Below, in pieces: positions 1 through 60,368 of a stretch of DNA of 64,000 nt. A program made the position numbers and the translations under genes. The stretch is from contig NZ_JAJQYA010000009.1 in NCBI RefSeq assembly GCF_021729155.1, positions 1-64,000 of the forward strand. Reading direction: 5' to 3'. This DNA is from Membranihabitans marinus (lineage in GTDB: Bacteria > Bacteroidota > Bacteroidia > Chitinophagales > Saprospiraceae). Numbering within the stretch: the first letter of the stretch is position 1; the number at the start of each line of letters is the position of its first letter. Under the pieces are notes generated by a model. It ran no database searches and was not told where the DNA came from. It saw nothing but the letters and a program-made list of their open reading frames with translations.

Positions 1-1053
1 TGAAAGATGTCAGTCATGGATCATGAATGTTCAAATTTCAGTTATGACCATCATTGACATCGATGCTTAATGGGAAGTTGAGGGGAGATATTGATTTTGA
101 CCCTAGAGTTGGAATTCGACAGAAAAACAGCCATAGATTTGAAAGCTTAAGCAGTAGTTAGAATAGTCGACTGAAGATGGTCTTATGGCTAGTGTAGAGG
201 TTTTAAATGATTGATCTTAATAACTAGTGTTCATATATGAATGATGTCAGTCATGAATCTGCAGTGTTCAAATTTCAGTTATGACCATCATTGACATCGA
301 TGCTTAATGGGAAGATAAGTGTTGGCTTAGATTTTAATCCTAGAGTTGGAATTCGACAGAAAAACAGCCATAGATTTGAAAGCTTAAGCAGTAGTTAGAA
401 TAGTCGACCGAAGATGGTCTTATGGCTAGTGTAGAGGATTTAGATGATTGATCTTAATAACTAGTGTTCATAGATGAAAGATGTCAGTCATGAATCTTGA
501 GTGTTCAAATTTCAGATAAGGCCATCATTGACATCGATGTTTAATGGGAAGATGAGGGTAGATATTGATTTTGACCCTAGAGTTGGAATTCGACAGAAAA
601 ACAGCCATAGATATGAAAGCTTAAGCAGTAGTTAGAATAGTCGACTGTGGATGATCTTATGGCTAGTGTAGAGGATTTAGATGATTGATCTTAATAACAG
701 TTTTAATAGATGAATGATGTCAGTCATGGATCATGAATGTTCAAATTTCCGATATGACCATCATTGACATCGATGCTTAATGGGAAGTTGAGGGGAGATA
801 TTGATTTTGACCCTAGAGTTGGAATTCGACAGAAAAACAGCCATAGGTATGAAAGCTTAAGCAGTAGTTAGAATAGTCGACTGTGGATGATCTTATGGCT
901 AGTGTAGAGGATTTAGATGATTGATCTTAATAACAGTTTTAATAGATGAATGATGTCAGTCATGAATCTGCAGTGTTCAAATTTCAGATATGGCCATCAT
1001 TGACATCGATGCTTAATGAGAATTTGCGAGTAGACATAGATTATGACCCGAGA
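1..1053. repeat. 237-bp tandem repeat, about 4.4 copies
   Basis: Five copies of one unit begin at 1, 238, 475, 711 and 947, giving periods of 237, 237, 236 and 236. The fifth copy stops matching at about 1053. Each unit starts with TGAAAGATGTCAGTCATG or TGAATGATGTCAGTCATG and contains CATCATTGACATCGATGC and GGAATTCGACAGAAAAACAG. Copies differ by scattered substitutions. All three plus frames are closed by a stop inside each unit, so the array is not coding on that strand, and no long minus-strand frame is present. The array starts exactly at the window edge, so more copies may lie upstream. No function is recognised. Confidence 0.93.
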
Positions 1054-1376
1054 GTTCTGACTTAAAATTTAAGTGAAGATTTTTAATGAGTTTCGAATTG
1101 ACCGTAACTATAGAATAGATACAGAACTTGAGTCGGGGAAGTTATTGAAATGAATACATACGAAAATCGGACCATCATATAGGTTGAATGTAAAAACAGT
1201 GTGAGATCTCTCAATGATGAGTAGGAATAAGCTGTAAATTCCTAATTATTTTAACTGGCTATGCCTATGTAGCAAGCACAGGTAAAGGGAGTTTCAGCTT
1301 ATTCTTTTCATTTGGTTAGAGATCAATATTAAACCAAACGAAGTTTATATTAACCAAATGAAATTGCCTTTTAAAT
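1054..1376. other. Intergenic stretch, no feature recognised
   Basis: Non-repeated DNA between the tandem array and the IS21-like relic. Short complementary words occur (CATTTGGTTAGAG and ATTAACCAAATGAAA around 1309-1362), which could form a weak stem. No gene, RNA gene or promoter of the TAnnTTTG type is evident. Confidence 0.4.
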
Positions 1377-1745: not shown

Positions 1746-1766
1746 ATCATAAAACGTAATTCGTAT
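1746..1766. repeat. Solitary terminal inverted repeat
   Basis: The word ATAAAACGTAATTCGTAT closely matches the right ends of the two inverted-repeat-bounded elements at 51842-52121 (ATAAAATGTAATTCGTAT) and 54344-54484 (ATAAAACGTAATGGGTAT). No matching left end (ATACGAATTAC) was found upstream in the window, so this is a lone end, a relic, or the end of an element whose other end is outside the window. Confidence 0.55.
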
Positions 1767-34633: not shown

Positions 34634-34649
34634 GTCCATATTTTGATGG

Positions 34650-34725
34650 AGAATGGTTAGTTGTTAGTGGTTAATTGTTAGTGGTTAATTATTAATGGTT
34701 AATGGTCAATGGTCAATTATTAATG
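34650..34725. repeat. AT-rich low-complexity repeat
   Basis: Degenerate copies of GGTTAATTGTTAGT and GGTTAATGGTCAAT in tandem border the left side of the hairpin modules. Similar tracts border the modules at 35219-35262, 58150-58277 and 58985-59025. Confidence 0.75.
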
Positions 34726-34747
34726 TGAGCGAGCATGACTGAACGAA

Positions 34748-35030
34748 ATACGAAGTATCCAATCGACTAAATGTCGATTGGGTGAAGGAACCGAGGGTTC
34801 CATCCCTCGGGTGGGTTGACAAAAGCACCAGAGCCCGTTAATCGATCTCTGGCGAGAACGACAGAATACAGTGCGAAGTACCCAATCCATTAAATAGGCA
34901 TATGATGAGGATGACCGAGCAAAATCCGAAGGATCAAAGGTCGTAAATCGACCTTTGGCGAGGGAACCGGAGCCACTGTGCTCCGGGTGGGTAGGCCAGG
35001 GCGAGTGAAGTCACAGCCACTGTGCTGTGA
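34748..35030 (-). repeat. Modular hairpin repeat block, copy 1
   Basis: Read on the minus strand this holds two full three-hairpin modules and extra hairpins. Module a: hairpin 1 at 34967-34986 (stem CCGGAGC, loop ACAGTG), linker TTCCCTCGCC, hairpin 2 at 34936-34956 (stem AAAGGTCG, loop ATTTA), hairpin 3 at 34924-34934 (stem ATCC, loop TTC). Module b: hairpin 1 at 34791-34810 (stem CCGAGGG, loop ATGGAA), linker TTCCTTCACC, hairpin 2 at 34759-34781 (stem CCAATCGAC, loop ATTTA), hairpin 3 at 34748-34758 (stem ATAC, loop TTC). Another ACAGTG-loop hairpin (stem TCACAGC) is at 35011-35030. Stems differ but stay complementary; loops and linkers are conserved. A degenerate module lies between. Confidence 0.85.
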
Positions 35031-35059
35031 CGAGACTGCATATAAATTTAAATCAGTGA

Positions 35060-35167
35060 CTAGTGACTAGTAGCTAGTGACTAGTTGCTAGTAGCTAGTA
35101 GCTAGTAGCTAGTTGCTAGTAGCTAGTTGCTAGTAGCTAGTTGCTAGTTGCTAGTTGCTAGTAGCTA
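35060..35167. repeat. CTAGTWG heptamer array, 15 copies
   Basis: Fifteen in-phase 7-bp units plus a partial one: CTAGTTG, CTAGTAG and CTAGTGA. All variation is at positions 6 and 7. The palindrome CTAG thus recurs every 7 bp for 108 bp. Confidence 0.95.
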
Positions 35168-35284
35168 ATGACTTAATTTAACCGCAGGGAATGGAAGCCT
35201 TCATTCCCAAGTCAAAACCATTGATAATTAATAATTGACAATTAATAATTAATAATTAAAATATGCCTTTCTCCTCCACAAAAA

Positions 35285-51531: not shown

Positions 51532-51841
51532 ATTACAATAAACTACAATACAGAGATATACAAATATCACATTAGATTTCTATCTTTATAAGAAATAAAC
51601 TAATGAAAAAACACTATTCCACAAGTCCAAACAGGACAATATAGGGCATTTTATCACCTCCATAACAATGTCCTCCCAATTCAAAAAATAGGAAAGACCT
51701 CAATACTAATCCTAGACCTAAACATAATCTACCACTATTAATAAAATGCAAACATCAACATAGTATTGTTATGAGACATCAAATCCAAGAGCACATGACT
51801 ATTTCTAACCTTTGTAAGACTAAACGCTGAAATTGGATATA
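51532..51841. other. Intergenic gap left of the mobile element
   Basis: AT-rich DNA between the terminator and the inverted-repeat-bounded element. No gene, promoter or repeat is recognised. Confidence 0.5.
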
Positions 51842-52121
51842 ATACGAATTACATTTATAATTTATAAGCTTACCCACCCACGCCACGGGGGCTTTCCCAC
51901 CCGAAACACGGAGGTTTCGTTTCCCTCGCCAAAGGTCGATTTACGACCTTTGATTGCTCAAAGAGCAATTTTGTTCAGTCGTAGCCTCGTCAAACGGCCA
52001 ACCCTCCCGTGAGACTGAGCTCACGGCTCCTTCGCTGAAAGTCGATTTACGACTTTCAATACTACGCATCCTGCTCAGTTGTCTCGAAATCTTTTCCGTC
52101 ATTATAAAATGTAATTCGTAT
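51842..52121 (+). mobile_element. MITE-like element with hairpin modules, copy 2
   Basis: A 280-bp element with terminal inverted repeats ATACGAATTACATTTATAAT (left) and ATTATAAAATGTAATTCGTAT-type right end. Inside are two modules on the plus strand. Module a: hairpin 1 at 51902-51919 (stem CGAAAC, loop ACGGAG), linker TTCCCTCGCC, hairpin 2 at 51931-51951 (stem AAAGGTCG, loop ATTTA), hairpin 3 at 51954-51968 (stem TTGCTC, loop AAA). Module b: hairpin 1 at 52007-52026 (stem CCGTGAG, loop ACTGAG), hairpin 2 at 52037-52057 (stem GAAAGTCG, loop ATTTA), degenerate hairpin 3. No transposase, so non-autonomous. No target duplication is clear. Confidence 0.75.
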
Positions 52122-52630
52122 AACAAGGCCAATTAACTCCTTTTGAGAATGTAAATACTTATTTCTAATTATATAATTATGAGATTCCCAGATTAATAGA
52201 GGATTGAAAAATAATATATAAAAACAATTAATAGTTTCCATCCATTTTCCTAGGAAGACATCCTACCATATAACTCATCCTGAGGACAACGGTCAAAAAG
52301 GCAGTCAAAGCGTTATTCAACAAAGCAAGAATTCCCCGTATAGCCTATTCCACAGCCACTACAACCTTTCTAAAAAGGAAGACTATTGTTATCCCTTGTA
52401 CAGGGAAAAGAGAGAATTATAGCTATCTCCTTTAAATTAACCTTAGGCAAATAGAAACATTAGATTCTATATATTTACAAGCCCCAAATAACACCTATTT
52501 CAGCAACTCCTATTTTGTTTAAATTAACCTCTCACTATGCATTTCATAAGAAATATCGAACATTACAGTGTCGACATTAAATATTCACAAGATTCAAGAC
52601 TAGGTGGTGTAGAGGAATGGAATATCTAAA
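52122..52630. other. Intergenic gap right of the mobile element
   Basis: About 500 bp between the element and the trmB stop. No gene, hairpin terminator or repeat is recognised. Confidence 0.5.
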
Positions 52631-53320
52631 TTAAGGTTGGTAACTACAGGATACGTATTTAATCGTCTTGCCATTGGCCAAATGCATTTTCTCGTAATAA
52701 GTCTGAATATCTAAGACCGATCTTTTCTCCAAAGCATATACATCGGGAATATCTGTATCCAATTCGTAGTTTACGTGTTCTTCAAAACTTTCCAAGGTAT
52801 ATTTATACAGGGTATCGTCATCTGTTTTTAGATGAACCTTACCCCCATTGACCAATATTTGGGAATACCGGTTGAGGAAAGCAGGTGAAGTCAATCGTCT
52901 ATTGGCATCGGAATTTCTTAAAAAAGGATCGGGAAAAGTAATCCAACATTGTGACACCTCTCCTTCTTGAAAATAATTTTGAATAAATTCGATTCTAGTG
53001 CGCAAAAAAGCCACATTATTCAACTCTTGATCCAAGGCAGAAGTAGCTCCTTCCCAAATTCTATTCCCCTTGATATCGACTCCGATAAAATTGTGATCTG
53101 GATTTTCTTTGGCCAATGCCAAGGTATAATCTCCCTTGCCACAGGCCAATTCTAAAACAATGGGATTATCGTTTTTAAAATAATCGAGATTCCATCTTCC
53201 TTTAGGTTTCCATTTGTCATCATTGTTCCGATAAACCTGTCCATCAAACAAATCAAAGGCCTCAAAAACATTGTTAAAAAGTGTTATTTCTGAAAATTTC
53301 CTTAGTTTATTCTTCCCCAT
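52631..53320 (-). CDS. trmB: tRNA (guanine-N7)-methyltransferase
   Basis: Makes m7G46 in tRNA with SAM. The 229-residue protein has the SAM-binding ELACGKGDYTLALA loop and the VDIKGNR, FPDPF and LKTDD motifs of TrmB. A full-match promoter lies at 53347-53354. Confidence 0.95.
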   Translation of the reverse strand: MGKNKLRKFSEITLFNNVFEAFDLFDGQVYRNNDDKWKPKGRWNLDYFKNDNPIVLELACGKGDYTLALAKENPDHNFIGVDIKGNRIWEGATSALDQELNNVAFLRTRIEFIQNYFQEGEVSQCWITFPDPFLRNSDANRRLTSPAFLNRYSQILVNGGKVHLKTDDDTLYKYTLESFEEHVNYELDTDIPDVYALEKRSVLDIQTYYEKMHLANGKTIKYVSCSYQP

Positions 53321-53346
53321 ACGTTATACCTTATAATTTGTCCCTA

Positions 53347-53354
53347 CAAAATTA
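53347..53354 (-). promoter_or_regulatory. Promoter -7 element for trmB
   Basis: The minus strand reads TAATTTTG, matching TAnnTTTG, 27 bp upstream of trmB. Confidence 0.5.
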
Positions 53355-53397
53355 ATAACTTTATTAAAGAAAGTAGGAATGGCATTCTAGTACTTTT

Positions 53398-53405
53398 TAT
53401 ATTTG
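53398..53405 (+). promoter_or_regulatory. Promoter -7 element for the outer-membrane protein gene
   Basis: TATATTTG, a full TAnnTTTG match, ends only 14 bp before the ATG at 53420, which implies a leader of about 5-10 nt. Confidence 0.55.
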
Positions 53406-53419
53406 CAAAAAATTTGACT

Positions 53420-54289
53420 ATGGCTCTTAAAAAATCATCCTTATTCCTGTTTTTTATTTTATTGGTATCGATACAATCTCAAGCCCAAGAATTTTCATTT
53501 GGATTCAAGGCTGGACTGACCAATACCAAGAATGACGGCCCTATAGAAATAGGAAGCAATGGCGAAAATCTGGAATCGATTAATGCCAAAAGCGCATTTA
53601 TCCTTTCTCTTTTAACCAATATTAGATTTACCGATGAATTTTCCCTTCAAGGCGAATTGATGTACAATCAGAAGGGGTACAACTACAATTACAATGGTCC
53701 TTCATACGCCATTGTAAGAACAGCAACGGATCGAACCTTTTATTTTAATGGCAATCGCGATTACAGCCTAAATGTGAACAATACCTACTTCCAAATTCCT
53801 CTATCGGTTTCGTACAAATTTTTCAACCGAATTGAATTGCAAGCCGGTGTATATGGAAGTTTATTGGTGCAGTCCACAGGAACTGGAGAGGTGAAATACA
53901 ACGACATTCCCGAGGTGAGTGGTGAATTGGTTCAAACCCTGAGTTACAATTTCAACAAAGACAATGCAGGTCAAGCCAGTCCCAGCAGTCAGCAAGTAAC
54001 GATCAACAACGATGTTCATACCATATCATCCCAAGTCGGAGCTTATTACGATTATTCTAGCGTTGACAAGTCTTTCTTTAACAAGATCGATGCTGGTTAT
54101 CATGTGGGACTTAATTTTTACATCAATCAAAGTCTGTTTATCGGGGCTAGATATTCCCTCAGTGCATTGGACAATACCAGAGCGGAAGTTGACAGAACCT
54201 TTACCCAACTTCAGAACAATGAATTGATCTTCAAAGACGATGAGGATAAATTCCAAACGCTGGAGTTTTCAATAGGATTCTCCTTCTAA
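53420..54289 (+). CDS. PorT-like outer-membrane beta-barrel protein
   Basis: Exported beta-barrel of 289 residues. Signal peptide about 1-22 (cleavage after QSQA), then repeating amphipathic strands (FSFGFKAGLTN, FSLQGELMYNQKGYN, LNFYINQSLFIGARYSLS) ending in the aromatic FSIGFSF typical of outer-membrane proteins. It fits the PorT/OMP beta-barrel group. The ATG at 53420 is chosen over a TTG two codons earlier. Cargo or role is unknown. Confidence 0.85.
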   Translation: MALKKSSLFLFFILLVSIQSQAQEFSFGFKAGLTNTKNDGPIEIGSNGENLESINAKSAFILSLLTNIRFTDEFSLQGELMYNQKGYNYNYNGPSYAIVRTATDRTFYFNGNRDYSLNVNNTYFQIPLSVSYKFFNRIELQAGVYGSLLVQSTGTGEVKYNDIPEVSGELVQTLSYNFNKDNAGQASPSSQQVTINNDVHTISSQVGAYYDYSSVDKSFFNKIDAGYHVGLNFYINQSLFIGARYSLSALDNTRAEVDRTFTQLQNNELIFKDDEDKFQTLEFSIGFSF

Positions 54290-54343
54290 TTCGTATAATA
54301 TACCCATGAAATACCAGAGGCATTTGGTATAGGAATAAGTATA

Positions 54344-54484
54344 ATACCAATTACGTTTCTAATAGATAAGCTCACCCACCCACTACACGGAAGTGAACGA
54401 GCATGACAGAATGAAGTTTCACGAAGTGCAACTACGTTCAGTCATTCAAAAATCTTAACCGACATCATAAAACGTAATGGGTAT
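54344..54484. mobile_element. Short MITE-like element, copy 3
   Basis: A 141-bp element with terminal inverted repeats ATACCAATTACGTTT (left) and AAACGTAATGGGTAT (right), two mismatches. After the left end it shares ATAAGCTCACCCACCCA with the element at 51842. The internal hairpins are degenerate. A TAATTCGTAT word at 54287-54296 overlapping the upstream stop resembles another element end. Confidence 0.7.
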
Positions 54485-54511
54485 AAGATCTGATTTCGCC
54501 GAAATCAGATC

Positions 54512-55681
54512 TTATTTTTTGGGCAGACGTATAGCAAAGGTAGTTCCTTCATCTAGCCCACTTTTCTTTACAAATATTTTGCCTTCGTGATAGTTTTCTA
54601 TAATGCGTTTGGCCAAAGACAATCCCAATCCCCAACCTCGTTTCTTGGTAGTATATCCCGGTTCAAAAACCGTCTTTTGATTTTGTGAAGATATTCCTTT
54701 CCCGGTATCGCTCAATTCTATTTCCCAATAATTATCCTCTTGATGAATGGTCGTGGTTATGGTACCTTTTCCAGACATGGCATCTAAAGCATTGCGCATC
54801 AGATTTTCGATAACCCAGTTAAAAAGATGGCTATTGATTTTGGCCATTATCACCTCTTGTTGACTTTCATTGATCAAGCTAAAAGTTATTTTTCTAGAAG
54901 CACGCTTTTCCATGTACTCCATGGTCTTTTTAATTTCATCGAGAATATTGGTATCCACTAAATTGGGGGCGGCTCCGATCTTAGAAAATCGATCTGCAAT
55001 AAGTTCCAAACGACCGACATCATTTTCCAATTCGTGAATGATATCGAGTTGTTCTTCATCGACTTCACTGGCTTTTAGATGTTCCAACCAAGCAATAATA
55101 GCAGAAATGGGCGTCCCCAATTGATGAGCTGTTTCTCTAGCCATACCTACCCAAACTCGATTTTGCTCCGCACTTCTACTCGTACTAAAACCCAGATATC
55201 CAATAAATACATAGGCCGCCAACAGCAATAAAATAATAAGGGGAAGTAGGGATAGTAGTTGATATTGGATCGGTGGAGCATAATAAAGACGATGTACAAA
55301 GCCCACTCCTTCGATGGAAAGCGGTTTTTCATCTGAATTTTTCATTTTCAGAAGTTGCTTTTCTAAGTATCCGGGGTTTTGAACCTTGGAATCAGGAAAA
55401 TTTAAAGAATTTAAAATCTGATCCTGTTCATTGACTATAATAATTCTGACATTGTTATTTCGACTGATTACATCGGTCTCAAAATTGACATCTTTATCAC
55501 TATTGTCTGGATCCTTGCTAATACTCTCATAGGCTACCGCAAGGTTTTCCATGTTGATTTTCAACACTTTCTTCAATTCGTTGGCTAAAAAGAAGGTATA
55601 AAAAATCGTAATAACGACGATAACTATGCCCGCAAAAACCAAGTTTAATTTCCAACGATTCTTTTTCTGATATATATCCAT
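54512..55681 (-). CDS. Orphan sensor histidine kinase
   Basis: A 389-residue membrane kinase. TM1 is at about 13-34, a periplasmic sensor of about 105 residues follows, TM2 is at about 140-163. The HisKA region has the phospho-acceptor His186 in ARETAHQLGTP, and the ATPase domain has NLMRNALDAM, DTGKGIS and GWGLGLSLAKRI. No HAMP is obvious. No response regulator gene is adjacent, so the partner is unknown. The signal is unknown. Confidence 0.93.
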   Translation of the reverse strand: MDIYQKKNRWKLNLVFAGIVIVVITIFYTFFLANELKKVLKINMENLAVAYESISKDPDNSDKDVNFETDVISRNNNVRIIIVNEQDQILNSLNFPDSKVQNPGYLEKQLLKMKNSDEKPLSIEGVGFVHRLYYAPPIQYQLLSLLPLIILLLLAAYVFIGYLGFSTSRSAEQNRVWVGMARETAHQLGTPISAIIAWLEHLKASEVDEEQLDIIHELENDVGRLELIADRFSKIGAAPNLVDTNILDEIKKTMEYMEKRASRKITFSLINESQQEVIMAKINSHLFNWVIENLMRNALDAMSGKGTITTTIHQEDNYWEIELSDTGKGISSQNQKTVFEPGYTTKKRGWGLGLSLAKRIIENYHEGKIFVKKSGLDEGTTFAIRLPKK

Positions 55682-58127: not shown

Positions 58128-58149
58128 TCTGGGAAGGTCTAATACTCCG

Positions 58150-58277
58150 ACATCATTAAACCATTGATAATTAACCATTAACAATTAGTTACTAGCTACT
58201 AGTCATTAACAATTAATCACTAACCATTGATATTTAACCATTAACAATTAGCCATTGATAATTGATAATTAACAAAT
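58150..58277. repeat. AT-rich low-complexity border
   Basis: Degenerate repeats of CATTAACAATTA and ACCATTGATAATTAA between yjbQ and the hairpin block, like the borders of copy 1. Confidence 0.7.
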
Positions 58278-58290
58278 GGGTGATTTAAAT

Positions 58291-58780
58291 TTAAATGCAG
58301 TGTCATCGCAGCACAGTGGCTGTGACTTCACTCGCCGTAGACCGATTTACGGGCTTTTCCCACCCATCCACGACACAGTGGTCGTGGCTCCTTCAAGCAA
58401 TTATATTATTACTGTGACAAGTACTTAAACTTGTCAATTTAAATGCAGTATCGTCGCAGCGCAGTGGCTGCGACTTCACTCGCCCTAGACCGATTTACGG
58501 GCTTTTCCCACCCATCCACGACACAGTGGTCGTGGCTCCTTCAAGCAATTATATTATTACTGTGACAAGTACTTAAACTTGTCAATTTAAATGCAGTATC
58601 GTCGCAGCGCAGTGGCTGCGACTTCACTCGCCCTAGACCGATTTACGGGCTTTTCCCACCCATCCACGACACAGTGGTCGTGGCTCCTTCAAGCAATTAT
58701 ATTATTACTGTGACAAGTACTTAAACTTGTCAATTTAAATGCAGTATCGTCGCAGCGCAGTGGCTGCGACTTCACTCGCC
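58291..58780 (+). repeat. 148-bp tandem repeat of hairpin modules
   Basis: Units start at 58291, 58439, 58587 and 58735 with a strict 148-bp period; the last is partial. Each contains a hairpin with stem TCGCAGC and loop GCAGTG (the first copy has loop ACAGTG and one G-T pair), the linker CTTCACTCGCC, a degenerate ATTTA-loop hairpin, a hairpin with stem CCACGAC and loop ACAGTG, and the inverted repeat TGACAAGT ... ACTTGTCA. The three full copies are almost identical, so the amplification is recent. Confidence 0.93.
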
Positions 58781-58990
58781 ATGGCCTACCCACCCGGAGC
58801 ACAGTGGCTGAAAAACTATCGAATTACGGGGCAATCACGCCTCGGCACAGTGGCCTACCCACCCGAAACACGGAGGTTTCGGTTCCCTCACCATTGATCC
58901 ATTAAGGATCAATGATGCTGCGCATTTTGTTCGGTCATCCTCGCCAAAGGTCGATTTACGACCTTTGATCCTTCGGATTTTGCTCGGTCA
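58781..58990 (+). repeat. Modular hairpin repeat block, copy 4
   Basis: After one degenerate ACAGTG-loop module, a full module has hairpin 1 at 58863-58882 (stem CCGAAAC, loop ACGGAG), linker TTCCCTCACC, hairpin 2 at 58893-58913 (stem ATTGATCC, loop ATTAA) and hairpin 3 at 58915-58925 (stem ATGC, loop TGC). A second hairpin 2 lies at 58946-58966 (stem AAAGGTCG, loop ATTTA) with hairpin 3 at 58968-58978 (stem ATCC, loop TTC), followed by TTTGCTCGGTCA. Confidence 0.85.
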
Positions 58991-59027
58991 CATTAATAAT
59001 TAACCATTGACAATTACTAATTAAATC

Positions 59028-60368
59028 CTACTCCTTATAAAACAACCACTTACCCAACTCCCTAAAGCTGGCCTTTTTCCCGTACATTAATATACCCACT
59101 CGATATATTTTACCCGATATCCACACCATAAACACCACAGCCACTACCAAAAAAAACAGAGACATCACTATCTGCCACCACGGAGGATTAAACGCCAGCC
59201 GGGCTGGCATAACAATAGGAGAAAATAAAGGAAATATACTAGACCATATCGCCAAACTGCTATCCGGCACTCGTATGGTCGTCATCATTATATAAAAAGC
59301 CATTAAAACAGGAATGGTTATCGGAAGGATAAGAGACTGGCTATCCTGCATATCATCACCCACAGCTGATCCCACAGCCGCAAACAGAGATGAATATATC
59401 AAATACCCCCCTATAAAATAACATATAAATAATACCACCAATTTAAACCACTGAATCTCCTGAACCTCTTGCATGACTTGATATACCATATACTCCACTT
59501 CGTCGGGAGAAATAGAACCCGTTCGGTTAAGATTTTCGATGGTTTCCATATCGGTTTCAAAACCAAAAAACATATTGCCTATCAACACCAAGCTGGGAAT
59601 AAGCAATATCCAAGATAAAAACTGTATCAATCCGATTAATCCAACACCCAGTATCTTGCCCATCATGAGTTCAAAGGGCTTAACTGAGGATATAATAACT
59701 TCTACGATGCGGTTGGTCTTCTCCTCCATCACACTTCGCATGACCATTGATCCATTGATAAAAACTATTAAATACATTATAAAACCCATAGCCATTCCCA
59801 ATCCAGCACCCAAATAGGAACTGAACTCAGAAGACCGGCCTACCTCTTCCCCCGACGGATTAGATGAATCCGTACTTATGGCCGTAGTTTCTATAGTAAC
59901 CCTGGTGTCCAACTGATCTAATTGAACTTGAGAAATATTCATTTCCTTTAATTTGAAATTTTTTATCTCCCTTTGGATAATAGACTTGAGGTTGGTCAAT
60001 TTTTCAATATCCAAATTTTTATCTGAATAATAGGTCACCGTAATTTCATCTACAGCTACATTTTGAATTTTGGGTATCCACAATATTCCATCATAGGCCT
60101 CGCTGGAATGACTCCTCAGTGTCCTAATATCCTCCTTTGAAAAACTAAAATAAAGATTGGACTGATCTTTAATACTACCGTTAAACAAATTGGCTTGATC
60201 GACGATGAGAATACTTTTCTCGTCATCCCCATTATACCCCATAATCAACCCAACCACGACTATAAAGATCCCTAAAATCAGAGGCCCCAACAAGGTAGCC
60301 AACCAAAATTTCCTATTTTTTACTCGAATTAAAAATTCCCTCCTCGCAATTAATAAAATCTTCTTCAT
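59028..60368 (-). CDS. ABC-2 type transporter permease (NatB-like)
   Basis: Membrane subunit of an ABC exporter. The 446-residue protein has TM1 at about 22-44, a large extracytoplasmic loop (about 45-180), then five more helices (first about 187-209). This is the NatB/YhaP-type layout. It follows the ATPase gene by 55 bp on the same strand. Substrate is unknown; NatAB relatives move Na+ or other ions, or drugs. Confidence 0.88.
   Translation of the reverse strand: MKKILLIARREFLIRVKNRKFWLATLLGPLILGIFIVVVGLIMGYNGDDEKSILIVDQANLFNGSIKDQSNLYFSFSKEDIRTLRSHSSEAYDGILWIPKIQNVAVDEITVTYYSDKNLDIEKLTNLKSIIQREIKNFKLKEMNISQVQLDQLDTRVTIETTAISTDSSNPSGEEVGRSSEFSSYLGAGLGMAMGFIMYLIVFINGSMVMRSVMEEKTNRIVEVIISSVKPFELMMGKILGVGLIGLIQFLSWILLIPSLVLIGNMFFGFETDMETIENLNRTGSISPDEVEYMVYQVMQEVQEIQWFKLVVLFICYFIGGYLIYSSLFAAVGSAVGDDMQDSQSLILPITIPVLMAFYIMMTTIRVPDSSLAIWSSIFPLFSPIVMPARLAFNPPWWQIVMSLFFLVVAVVFMVWISGKIYRVGILMYGKKASFRELGKWLFYKE

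What the first reader, a model, noticed from the sequence alone, without database searches (positions are those of the whole stretch)
51842..54484. Hairpin modules carried by inverted-repeat-bounded, transposase-less elements
The 280-bp element at 51842-52121 and the 141-bp element at 54344-54484 share terminal inverted repeats with the core ATAC..ATTAC.TTT and the next inner word ATAAGCT(T/C)ACCCACCCA. Neither has a transposase, so they look like MITEs mobilised in trans. This gives a mechanism for spread of the hairpin modules. Copies 1 and 4 lack these ends, so modules can also move or amplify without them.
Basis: partly seen in the sequence, partly recalled or inferred. Interest (0 to 1): 0.62.

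Follow-up and report, generated by a model that had tools for sequence, protein, structure and literature searches.

The report
Transposase-less jumping hairpin elements (MITEs)
The two short pieces are real members of a small, transposase-less jumping-DNA family with many copies in this bacterium, some of which carry folded hairpin units as passengers; relatives in other genera keep the middle of the basic element constant while its ends, which usually matter for jumping, differ.

Summary
Both elements belong to a MITE family: the terminal word has 148 exact genome matches against 4 for a reversed control, and a canonical 161-bp form has at least 34 full-length copies. The true unit is TAC...GTA with a 3-bp TWA target duplication: 31 of 34 strict pairs match, and same-genome empty sites agree, including two for module-bearing elements. 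The 280-bp element has a 97% sister elsewhere with another target triplet and is absent between the same genes in two congeners. Corrections: the "inner word" is the tail of a hairpin module, not terminal repeat; 53 of 78 top-scoring modules have no detectable end within 900 bp by two tests, so MITE carriage explains a minority. No intact autonomous partner was found. Module stems covary with few G-T pairs, which favours DNA over RNA pairing.

The parts
51840..51842 (.). left copy of 3-bp target duplication (TAA)
   Evidence: sequence; TSD rule
51843..52120 (+). module-bearing MITE, 278 bp without TSD
   Evidence: ends; 97% full-length sister at C11:366916-367195 with TTA flanks
51843..51856 (+). 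left terminal inverted repeat TACGAATTACATTT
52107..52120 (-). right terminal inverted repeat
51896..51980 (-). hairpin module 1 (three stems)
   Evidence: R1 82.8 bits
52002..52080 (-). hairpin module 2
   Evidence: R1 77.6 bits
52121..52123 (.). right copy of target duplication (TAA)
54342..54344 (.). left copy of target duplication (TAA)
54345..54483 (+). short MITE, 139 bp; by eye holds remnants of a module (start ATGACTGAACGTAG and tail GTGGGTGGGTGAGCTTAT on the - strand) but no module scores
54345..54358 (+). left terminal inverted repeat TACCAATTACGTTT
54470..54483 (-). right terminal inverted repeat TACCCATTACGTTT
54484..54486 (.). right copy of target duplication (TAA)
1752..1766 (-). 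unpaired end of the same family
34737..34815 (+). free module (copy 1)
34913..34991 (+). free module (copy 1), no terminal repeat near
58858..58936 (-). free module (copy 4), no terminal repeat near

Best explanation
Both elements are non-autonomous DNA transposons (MITEs). Shown: a unit TAC...GTA inserts precisely at a TWA trinucleotide and duplicates it; the canonical 161-bp form is a long imperfect palindrome with a centre conserved across genera; in many copies the part between the end arms is replaced or extended by one to several 80-bp hairpin modules, nearly always in one orientation; some module-bearing forms have themselves multiplied. Inferred: a DDE transposase of the IS5 / PIF-Harbinger kind, acting in trans and now lost, decayed or not assembled, moved them; modules were captured from a separate family of hairpin repeats and ride along. 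Inferred too: module stems are kept complementary at the DNA level, by cruciform or single-strand recognition or by template switching between arms, rather than as RNA.
For: 148 ends against 4 in the control. At least 34 full-length 161-bp copies at 83-100% (40 of 214 candidates scored). 31 of 34 strict pairs, formed among the 136 TWA-preceded ends, have matching flank triplets where independence predicts about 18, P about 2.5e-6. Empty sites: C53 GACTTA[159]TTACTGG against GACTTACTGG in a paralogous stretch, 99% over 157 bp; C24 and C27 module-bearing CAATCTAA[241 or 318]TAATATAAC against CAATCTAATATAAC. 33 of 53 elements bear modules; subtypes in 2 to 4 copies. 70 of 71 module hits in 31 orientable elements face one way. 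Gene order orf-trmB-barrel is kept in G001 and G002 with neither ends nor module in the gap; barrel-HK in G001 holds no module and only one three-mismatch end-like word without a partner. Module stems B and C: 97.1% paired, covariation 0.772 against 0.216 shuffled; G-T 19 of 1958 cells, A-C 6.
Against: No intact transposon with these ends was found: no zero-mismatch pair over 850 bp except pairs that span neighbouring elements or ends; of seven pairs of 775-3175 bp I read the ORFs of three, and one holds an IS110-type (DEDD) fragment, not a DDE gene. Two IS5-like genes were found: the C76 gene has no end upstream but one decayed end about 200 bp downstream, so it may be a relic parent or a chance neighbour; the C15 fragment starts at a contig edge and could not be tested. 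PF13359 and PF13612 were not searched. 3 of 34 pairs have unequal triplets, and a further apparent empty site (C27 161-bp copy) matches poorly at the junction. Some paralogous empty sites could be later deletions. G-T slightly exceeds A-C, so a weak RNA contribution is not excluded; the commonest mismatch is A-G (49 cells).
Confidence: 0.85

Rival explanations
1. The hairpin module, not the terminal repeats, is the main mobile unit; ends and modules meet because modules enter MITEs.
For: 53 of 78 top-scoring modules have no detectable end near; modules occur in G001, G002, G011 and G015, in the first three of which the 161-bp form matches only in its centre and in G015 not at all.
Against: 70 of 71 module hits inside elements share one orientation, unlike independent insertion; module-bearing elements show clean TWA empty sites at the MITE ends. 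Module borders were not tested for empty sites.
Confidence: 0.35
2. Elements spread by homologous recombination or segmental duplication of intergenic DNA.
For: Duplicated flanks exist around some copies (C53, C24, C27).
Against: The four 237-bp, two 307-bp and two 280-bp copies show different outer flanks in the 8 bases printed.
Confidence: 0.05
3. Modules are structured RNAs (terminators or small RNAs) kept for RNA function.
For: Strong covariation.
Against: G-T only 1.0% of cells, while RNA helices usually hold several per cent or more (recalled); no Rfam match at E<=1 in window 51700-54600.
Confidence: 0.12
4. The conserved centre of the 161-bp form is a terminator, promoter or host-factor site under selection in its own right, not part of the mobility signal.
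For: By eye, an inverted repeat with T runs on both sides (sequences).
Against: Conservation extends into letters outside the inverted repeat (AGGC.AAAAACGCAG, AACGAAG).
Confidence: 0.4

Closest known systems
BrickBuilt MITE of Porphyromonas gingivalis (PMC4596501; abstract, and passages)
   Same: A Bacteroidota MITE-like element that, in its authors' words, has trapped a repeat, propagating itself and the repeat; intergenic, 19 copies in one strain.
   Different: Passenger is a 23-nt tandem repeat without spacers; here 80-bp multi-hairpin modules with covarying stems. Sequence relation not tested.
MITECca01 of Cardinium (PMC9769881; passages)
   Same: High-copy Bacteroidota MITE (169 copies there).
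   Different: Likely derived from an IS982-family parent (ISCca4) in the same genome; here no intact parent found.
IS5 / PIF-Harbinger type elements (TSD rules recalled; PMC4482050 seen only as abstract start)
   Same: 3-bp TWA/TNA target duplication.
   Different: No intact transposase with these ends identified.
REP/REPIN and GTAG/CGTC-tagged palindromes (PMC3116915, PMC3733652; abstract starts only)
   Same: High-copy palindromic repeats.
   Different: Modules hold several stems with conserved linkers GACYGA, GARGGAACC and GGGTGGG; stems vary between copies. RAYT gene not searched.

Membership tests
MITE | short, inverted terminal repeats, many copies | tested here: met
MITE | target site duplication | tested here: met
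   31 of 34 pairs; empty sites
MITE | no transposase gene inside | tested here: met
   no ORF of 80 aa or more overlaps either window element
MITE | autonomous relative with the same ends | tested here: inconclusive
   no intact one found; one possible relic; draft of 78 contigs, some families not searched
IS5 / PIF-Harbinger derived MITE | 3-bp TWA or TNA duplication | tested here: met
IS5 / PIF-Harbinger derived MITE | ends match an IS5-type transposon | tested here: inconclusive
   C76 IS5-like gene has one decayed end downstream and none upstream; C15 fragment untestable at a contig edge
REP/REPIN | RAYT (Y1) transposase in the genome | not tested
Rfam RNA family | match to a covariance model | tested here: not met
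   none in the window elements; two weak hits below gathering score in loci L211 and L129

The most novel reading that the evidence does not exclude
An inside-out MITE superfamily: across Saprospiraceae and other Chitinophagales a roughly 155-165-bp palindromic element keeps a ~50-nt centre while its inverted-repeat arms and tips are replaced, staying complementary within each element. The constant part would then be the apex of a hairpin that the mobility machinery or a host factor reads, the stem only needing to pair, and hairpin modules would be plug-in replacements for that apex.
Probability: 0.35. Interest if true: 0.75.

Novelty: new variant of a known kind. Interest (0 to 1): 0.55.

Why it matters
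Ordinary MITEs keep their ends, which the transposase reads, and let the middle drift. A family that keeps the middle and changes the ends would point to a different way of recognising DNA for transposition, and a constant core makes the family easy to track. The module-bearing copies show how MITEs pick up and spread structured passenger DNA.

Tried and rejected
Autonomous element with the same ends: strict pairs under 1.5 kb, relaxed pairs up to 4 kb in the fetched stretches, and two Pfam transposase families gave no intact one. In the list of 47 pairs, seven of 775-3175 bp were dropped; ORFs were read in three of them, one an IS110-type fragment. Rfam: nothing above gathering score. Phage and plasmid records: no match for the 280-bp element in phages or the 161-bp form in plasmids. 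IMG/VR: no core match and three end matches; one has a one-mismatch partner 1 kb away with unequal flank triplets, the others none near. The stem inside the core is not a perfect covarying stem: 14 of 41 rows pair fully.

Limits of the core result. The core was found by pattern, so its 35 searched letters are conserved by construction; fairer figures are the 15 nt upstream of the pattern (0.75, 32 genomes; the two nearest letters were fixed in the loci) and the first BLAST, where the matches in relatives fell in the middle of the element. The within-element tip identity of 0.89 is inflated, since tips were chosen as the best-matching pair with at least 11 of 14; the cross-arm test (25 of 32) is the better one, though it too used the best-scoring element per genome. 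TNA flanks were found for 11 of 28 elements with clear tips against 1-3 in controls, in part because the script often picked arms short of the tip.

First count corrected: one search used exact ends only and gave 61 of 78 modules without an end; a profile of the ends (0 hits in 80,000 control bases) gave 54; 53 fail both.

Full report
What is there. The window lies in a 5.4-Mb draft genome of 78 contigs. Same-order genome G025 has contigs of the same numbers and lengths as a record titled uncultured Chitinophagales bacterium, so the order is probably Chitinophagales; named records with the core are titled Saprospiraceae, Chitinophagales or Bacteroidetes. The end word ATACNNATTACNTTT has 148 exact matches in the genome and 4 for the reversed control. 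A 161-bp canonical form has at least 34 full-length copies at 83-100% (only 40 of 214 candidates were scored). Of the 148 ends, 65 are preceded by TTA and 71 by TAA. In 34 strict pairs among these 136 ends, 31 have the same triplet on both sides, where independence predicts about 18. The element is therefore TAC...GTA and the target a duplicated TWA.

Empty sites. Joining flanks and searching the fetched sequence gave a filled and an unfilled version at C53 (canonical form; GACTTA[159]TTACTGG against GACTTACTGG, paralogous stretch at 99% over 157 bp) and for module-bearing forms at C24 and C27 (CAATCTAA[241 or 318]TAATATAAC against CAATCTAATATAAC at C66 and C24). A fourth candidate (C27 canonical copy) matched poorly at the junction.

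The window copies. The 280-bp element has a 97% full-length sister at C11, flanked by TTA instead of TAA. In both congeners searched the gene order orf50480-trmB-barrel is kept, at 52-79% protein identity, and the gap holds neither these ends (up to two mismatches) nor a module. At the 141-bp site, G001 keeps barrel-HK with a 390-bp gap without a module and with only one three-mismatch end-like word and no partner; in G002 the gap is 2.1 kb and no module was found there.

Modules. A 78-86-nt unit reads GACYGA-stem A-stem B-RYGARGGAACC-stem C-GGGTGGG. The 41 aligned units are 40 that differ by at least 7% out of 81 nearly full-length hits (of 137 hits in all) plus one from the window. On them stems B and C are 97.1% paired and covary far beyond shuffles and slides on the cell-based measures; the counts of pairs and pair types exceed shuffles only weakly, and hardly or not at all on 123 distinct rows fitted to the model, where 96.3% of cells pair (150 of 212 matches aligned). 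Stem A was not counted. G-T makes 19 of 1958 cells and A-C 6. RNA helices normally tolerate more G-U (recalled), so I favour pairing at the DNA level; this is inference. At least 78 units score in this genome (the number scored is capped), 48 in G001, 16 in G002, 28 in G015, 7 in G011; 9 of 60 genomes searched, this one included, have a match.

Modules and ends. With exact ends only, 61 of the 78 have none within 900 bp; with a profile of the ends, 16 have ends on both sides, 8 on one side, 54 none; 53 fail both tests, 8 of them within 900 bp of a contig end. Of 53 extracted elements (40 of the 47 pairs, which required equal triplets, plus 13 added by hand), 33 carry modules, 18 have the core and no module, 2 neither. 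In 31 orientable module-bearing elements 70 of 71 module hits face the same way, which speaks for few capture events and later exchange, not repeated random insertion.

The conserved centre. With the 161-bp form as query, 11 of 40 genomes searched, this one included, had matches; in the relatives they fall in the middle of the element. A core pattern with up to 2 mismatches is in 20 of 396 genomes of the order, 17 of 164 genera, this one included, with no control match. In 33 labelled elements position-wise identity is 0.83-0.90 in the core windows and 0.28-0.35 at the outer positions, background 0.273; two of the 33 labels, MAG78 and G160, are probably the same genome and were merged later. 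The 15 nt upstream of the searched letters average 0.75 over 32 genomes; tips average 0.30 between the 28 with clear tips, four having none. Arm-to-arm scores exceed the 99th percentile of cross-element scores in 25 of 32.

A possible parent. One IS5-like gene (DDE_Tnp_1_2 with DUF772) at C76 has a decayed end of this family about 200 bp downstream, facing the gene, and none upstream. It may be a relic of the parent or a MITE that landed beside an unrelated gene.

Reading. The finding is a MITE family with passengers, a kind known from Porphyromonas (BrickBuilt, PMC4596501). What is unusual is the conserved-centre, variable-end pattern and the module architecture. My searches of the paper library showed no title or abstract start describing it; the library covers open-licence papers only and I opened three of the papers.

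Noticed in passing
window 1752-1766 (-): A third exact end of the same family, without a strict partner; flanking triplet TTA read outward-in on its own strand.
   Followed up: partly
window 34646-35265 and 58148-59053: Free module arrays are flanked by 7-bp-periodic tandem repeats (TAGTNAC and TTAATGG types); three 148-bp-spaced tandem units at 58288-58780.
   Followed up: no
window 1-1056: Head-to-tail copies of a 237-bp repeat, 86-94% alike.
   Followed up: no
L047 (C76:123813-127238): An IS5-like transposase gene with a decayed MITE end (and, by eye, a module) directly downstream; a possible relic parent.
   Followed up: partly
L106 (G004): A single module next to what reads as the end of an RHS-type gene (by eye, not scanned).
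   Followed up: no
L128-L146, L209-L238: Order-wide palindromic elements with one constant centre and unrelated tips.
   Followed up: yes
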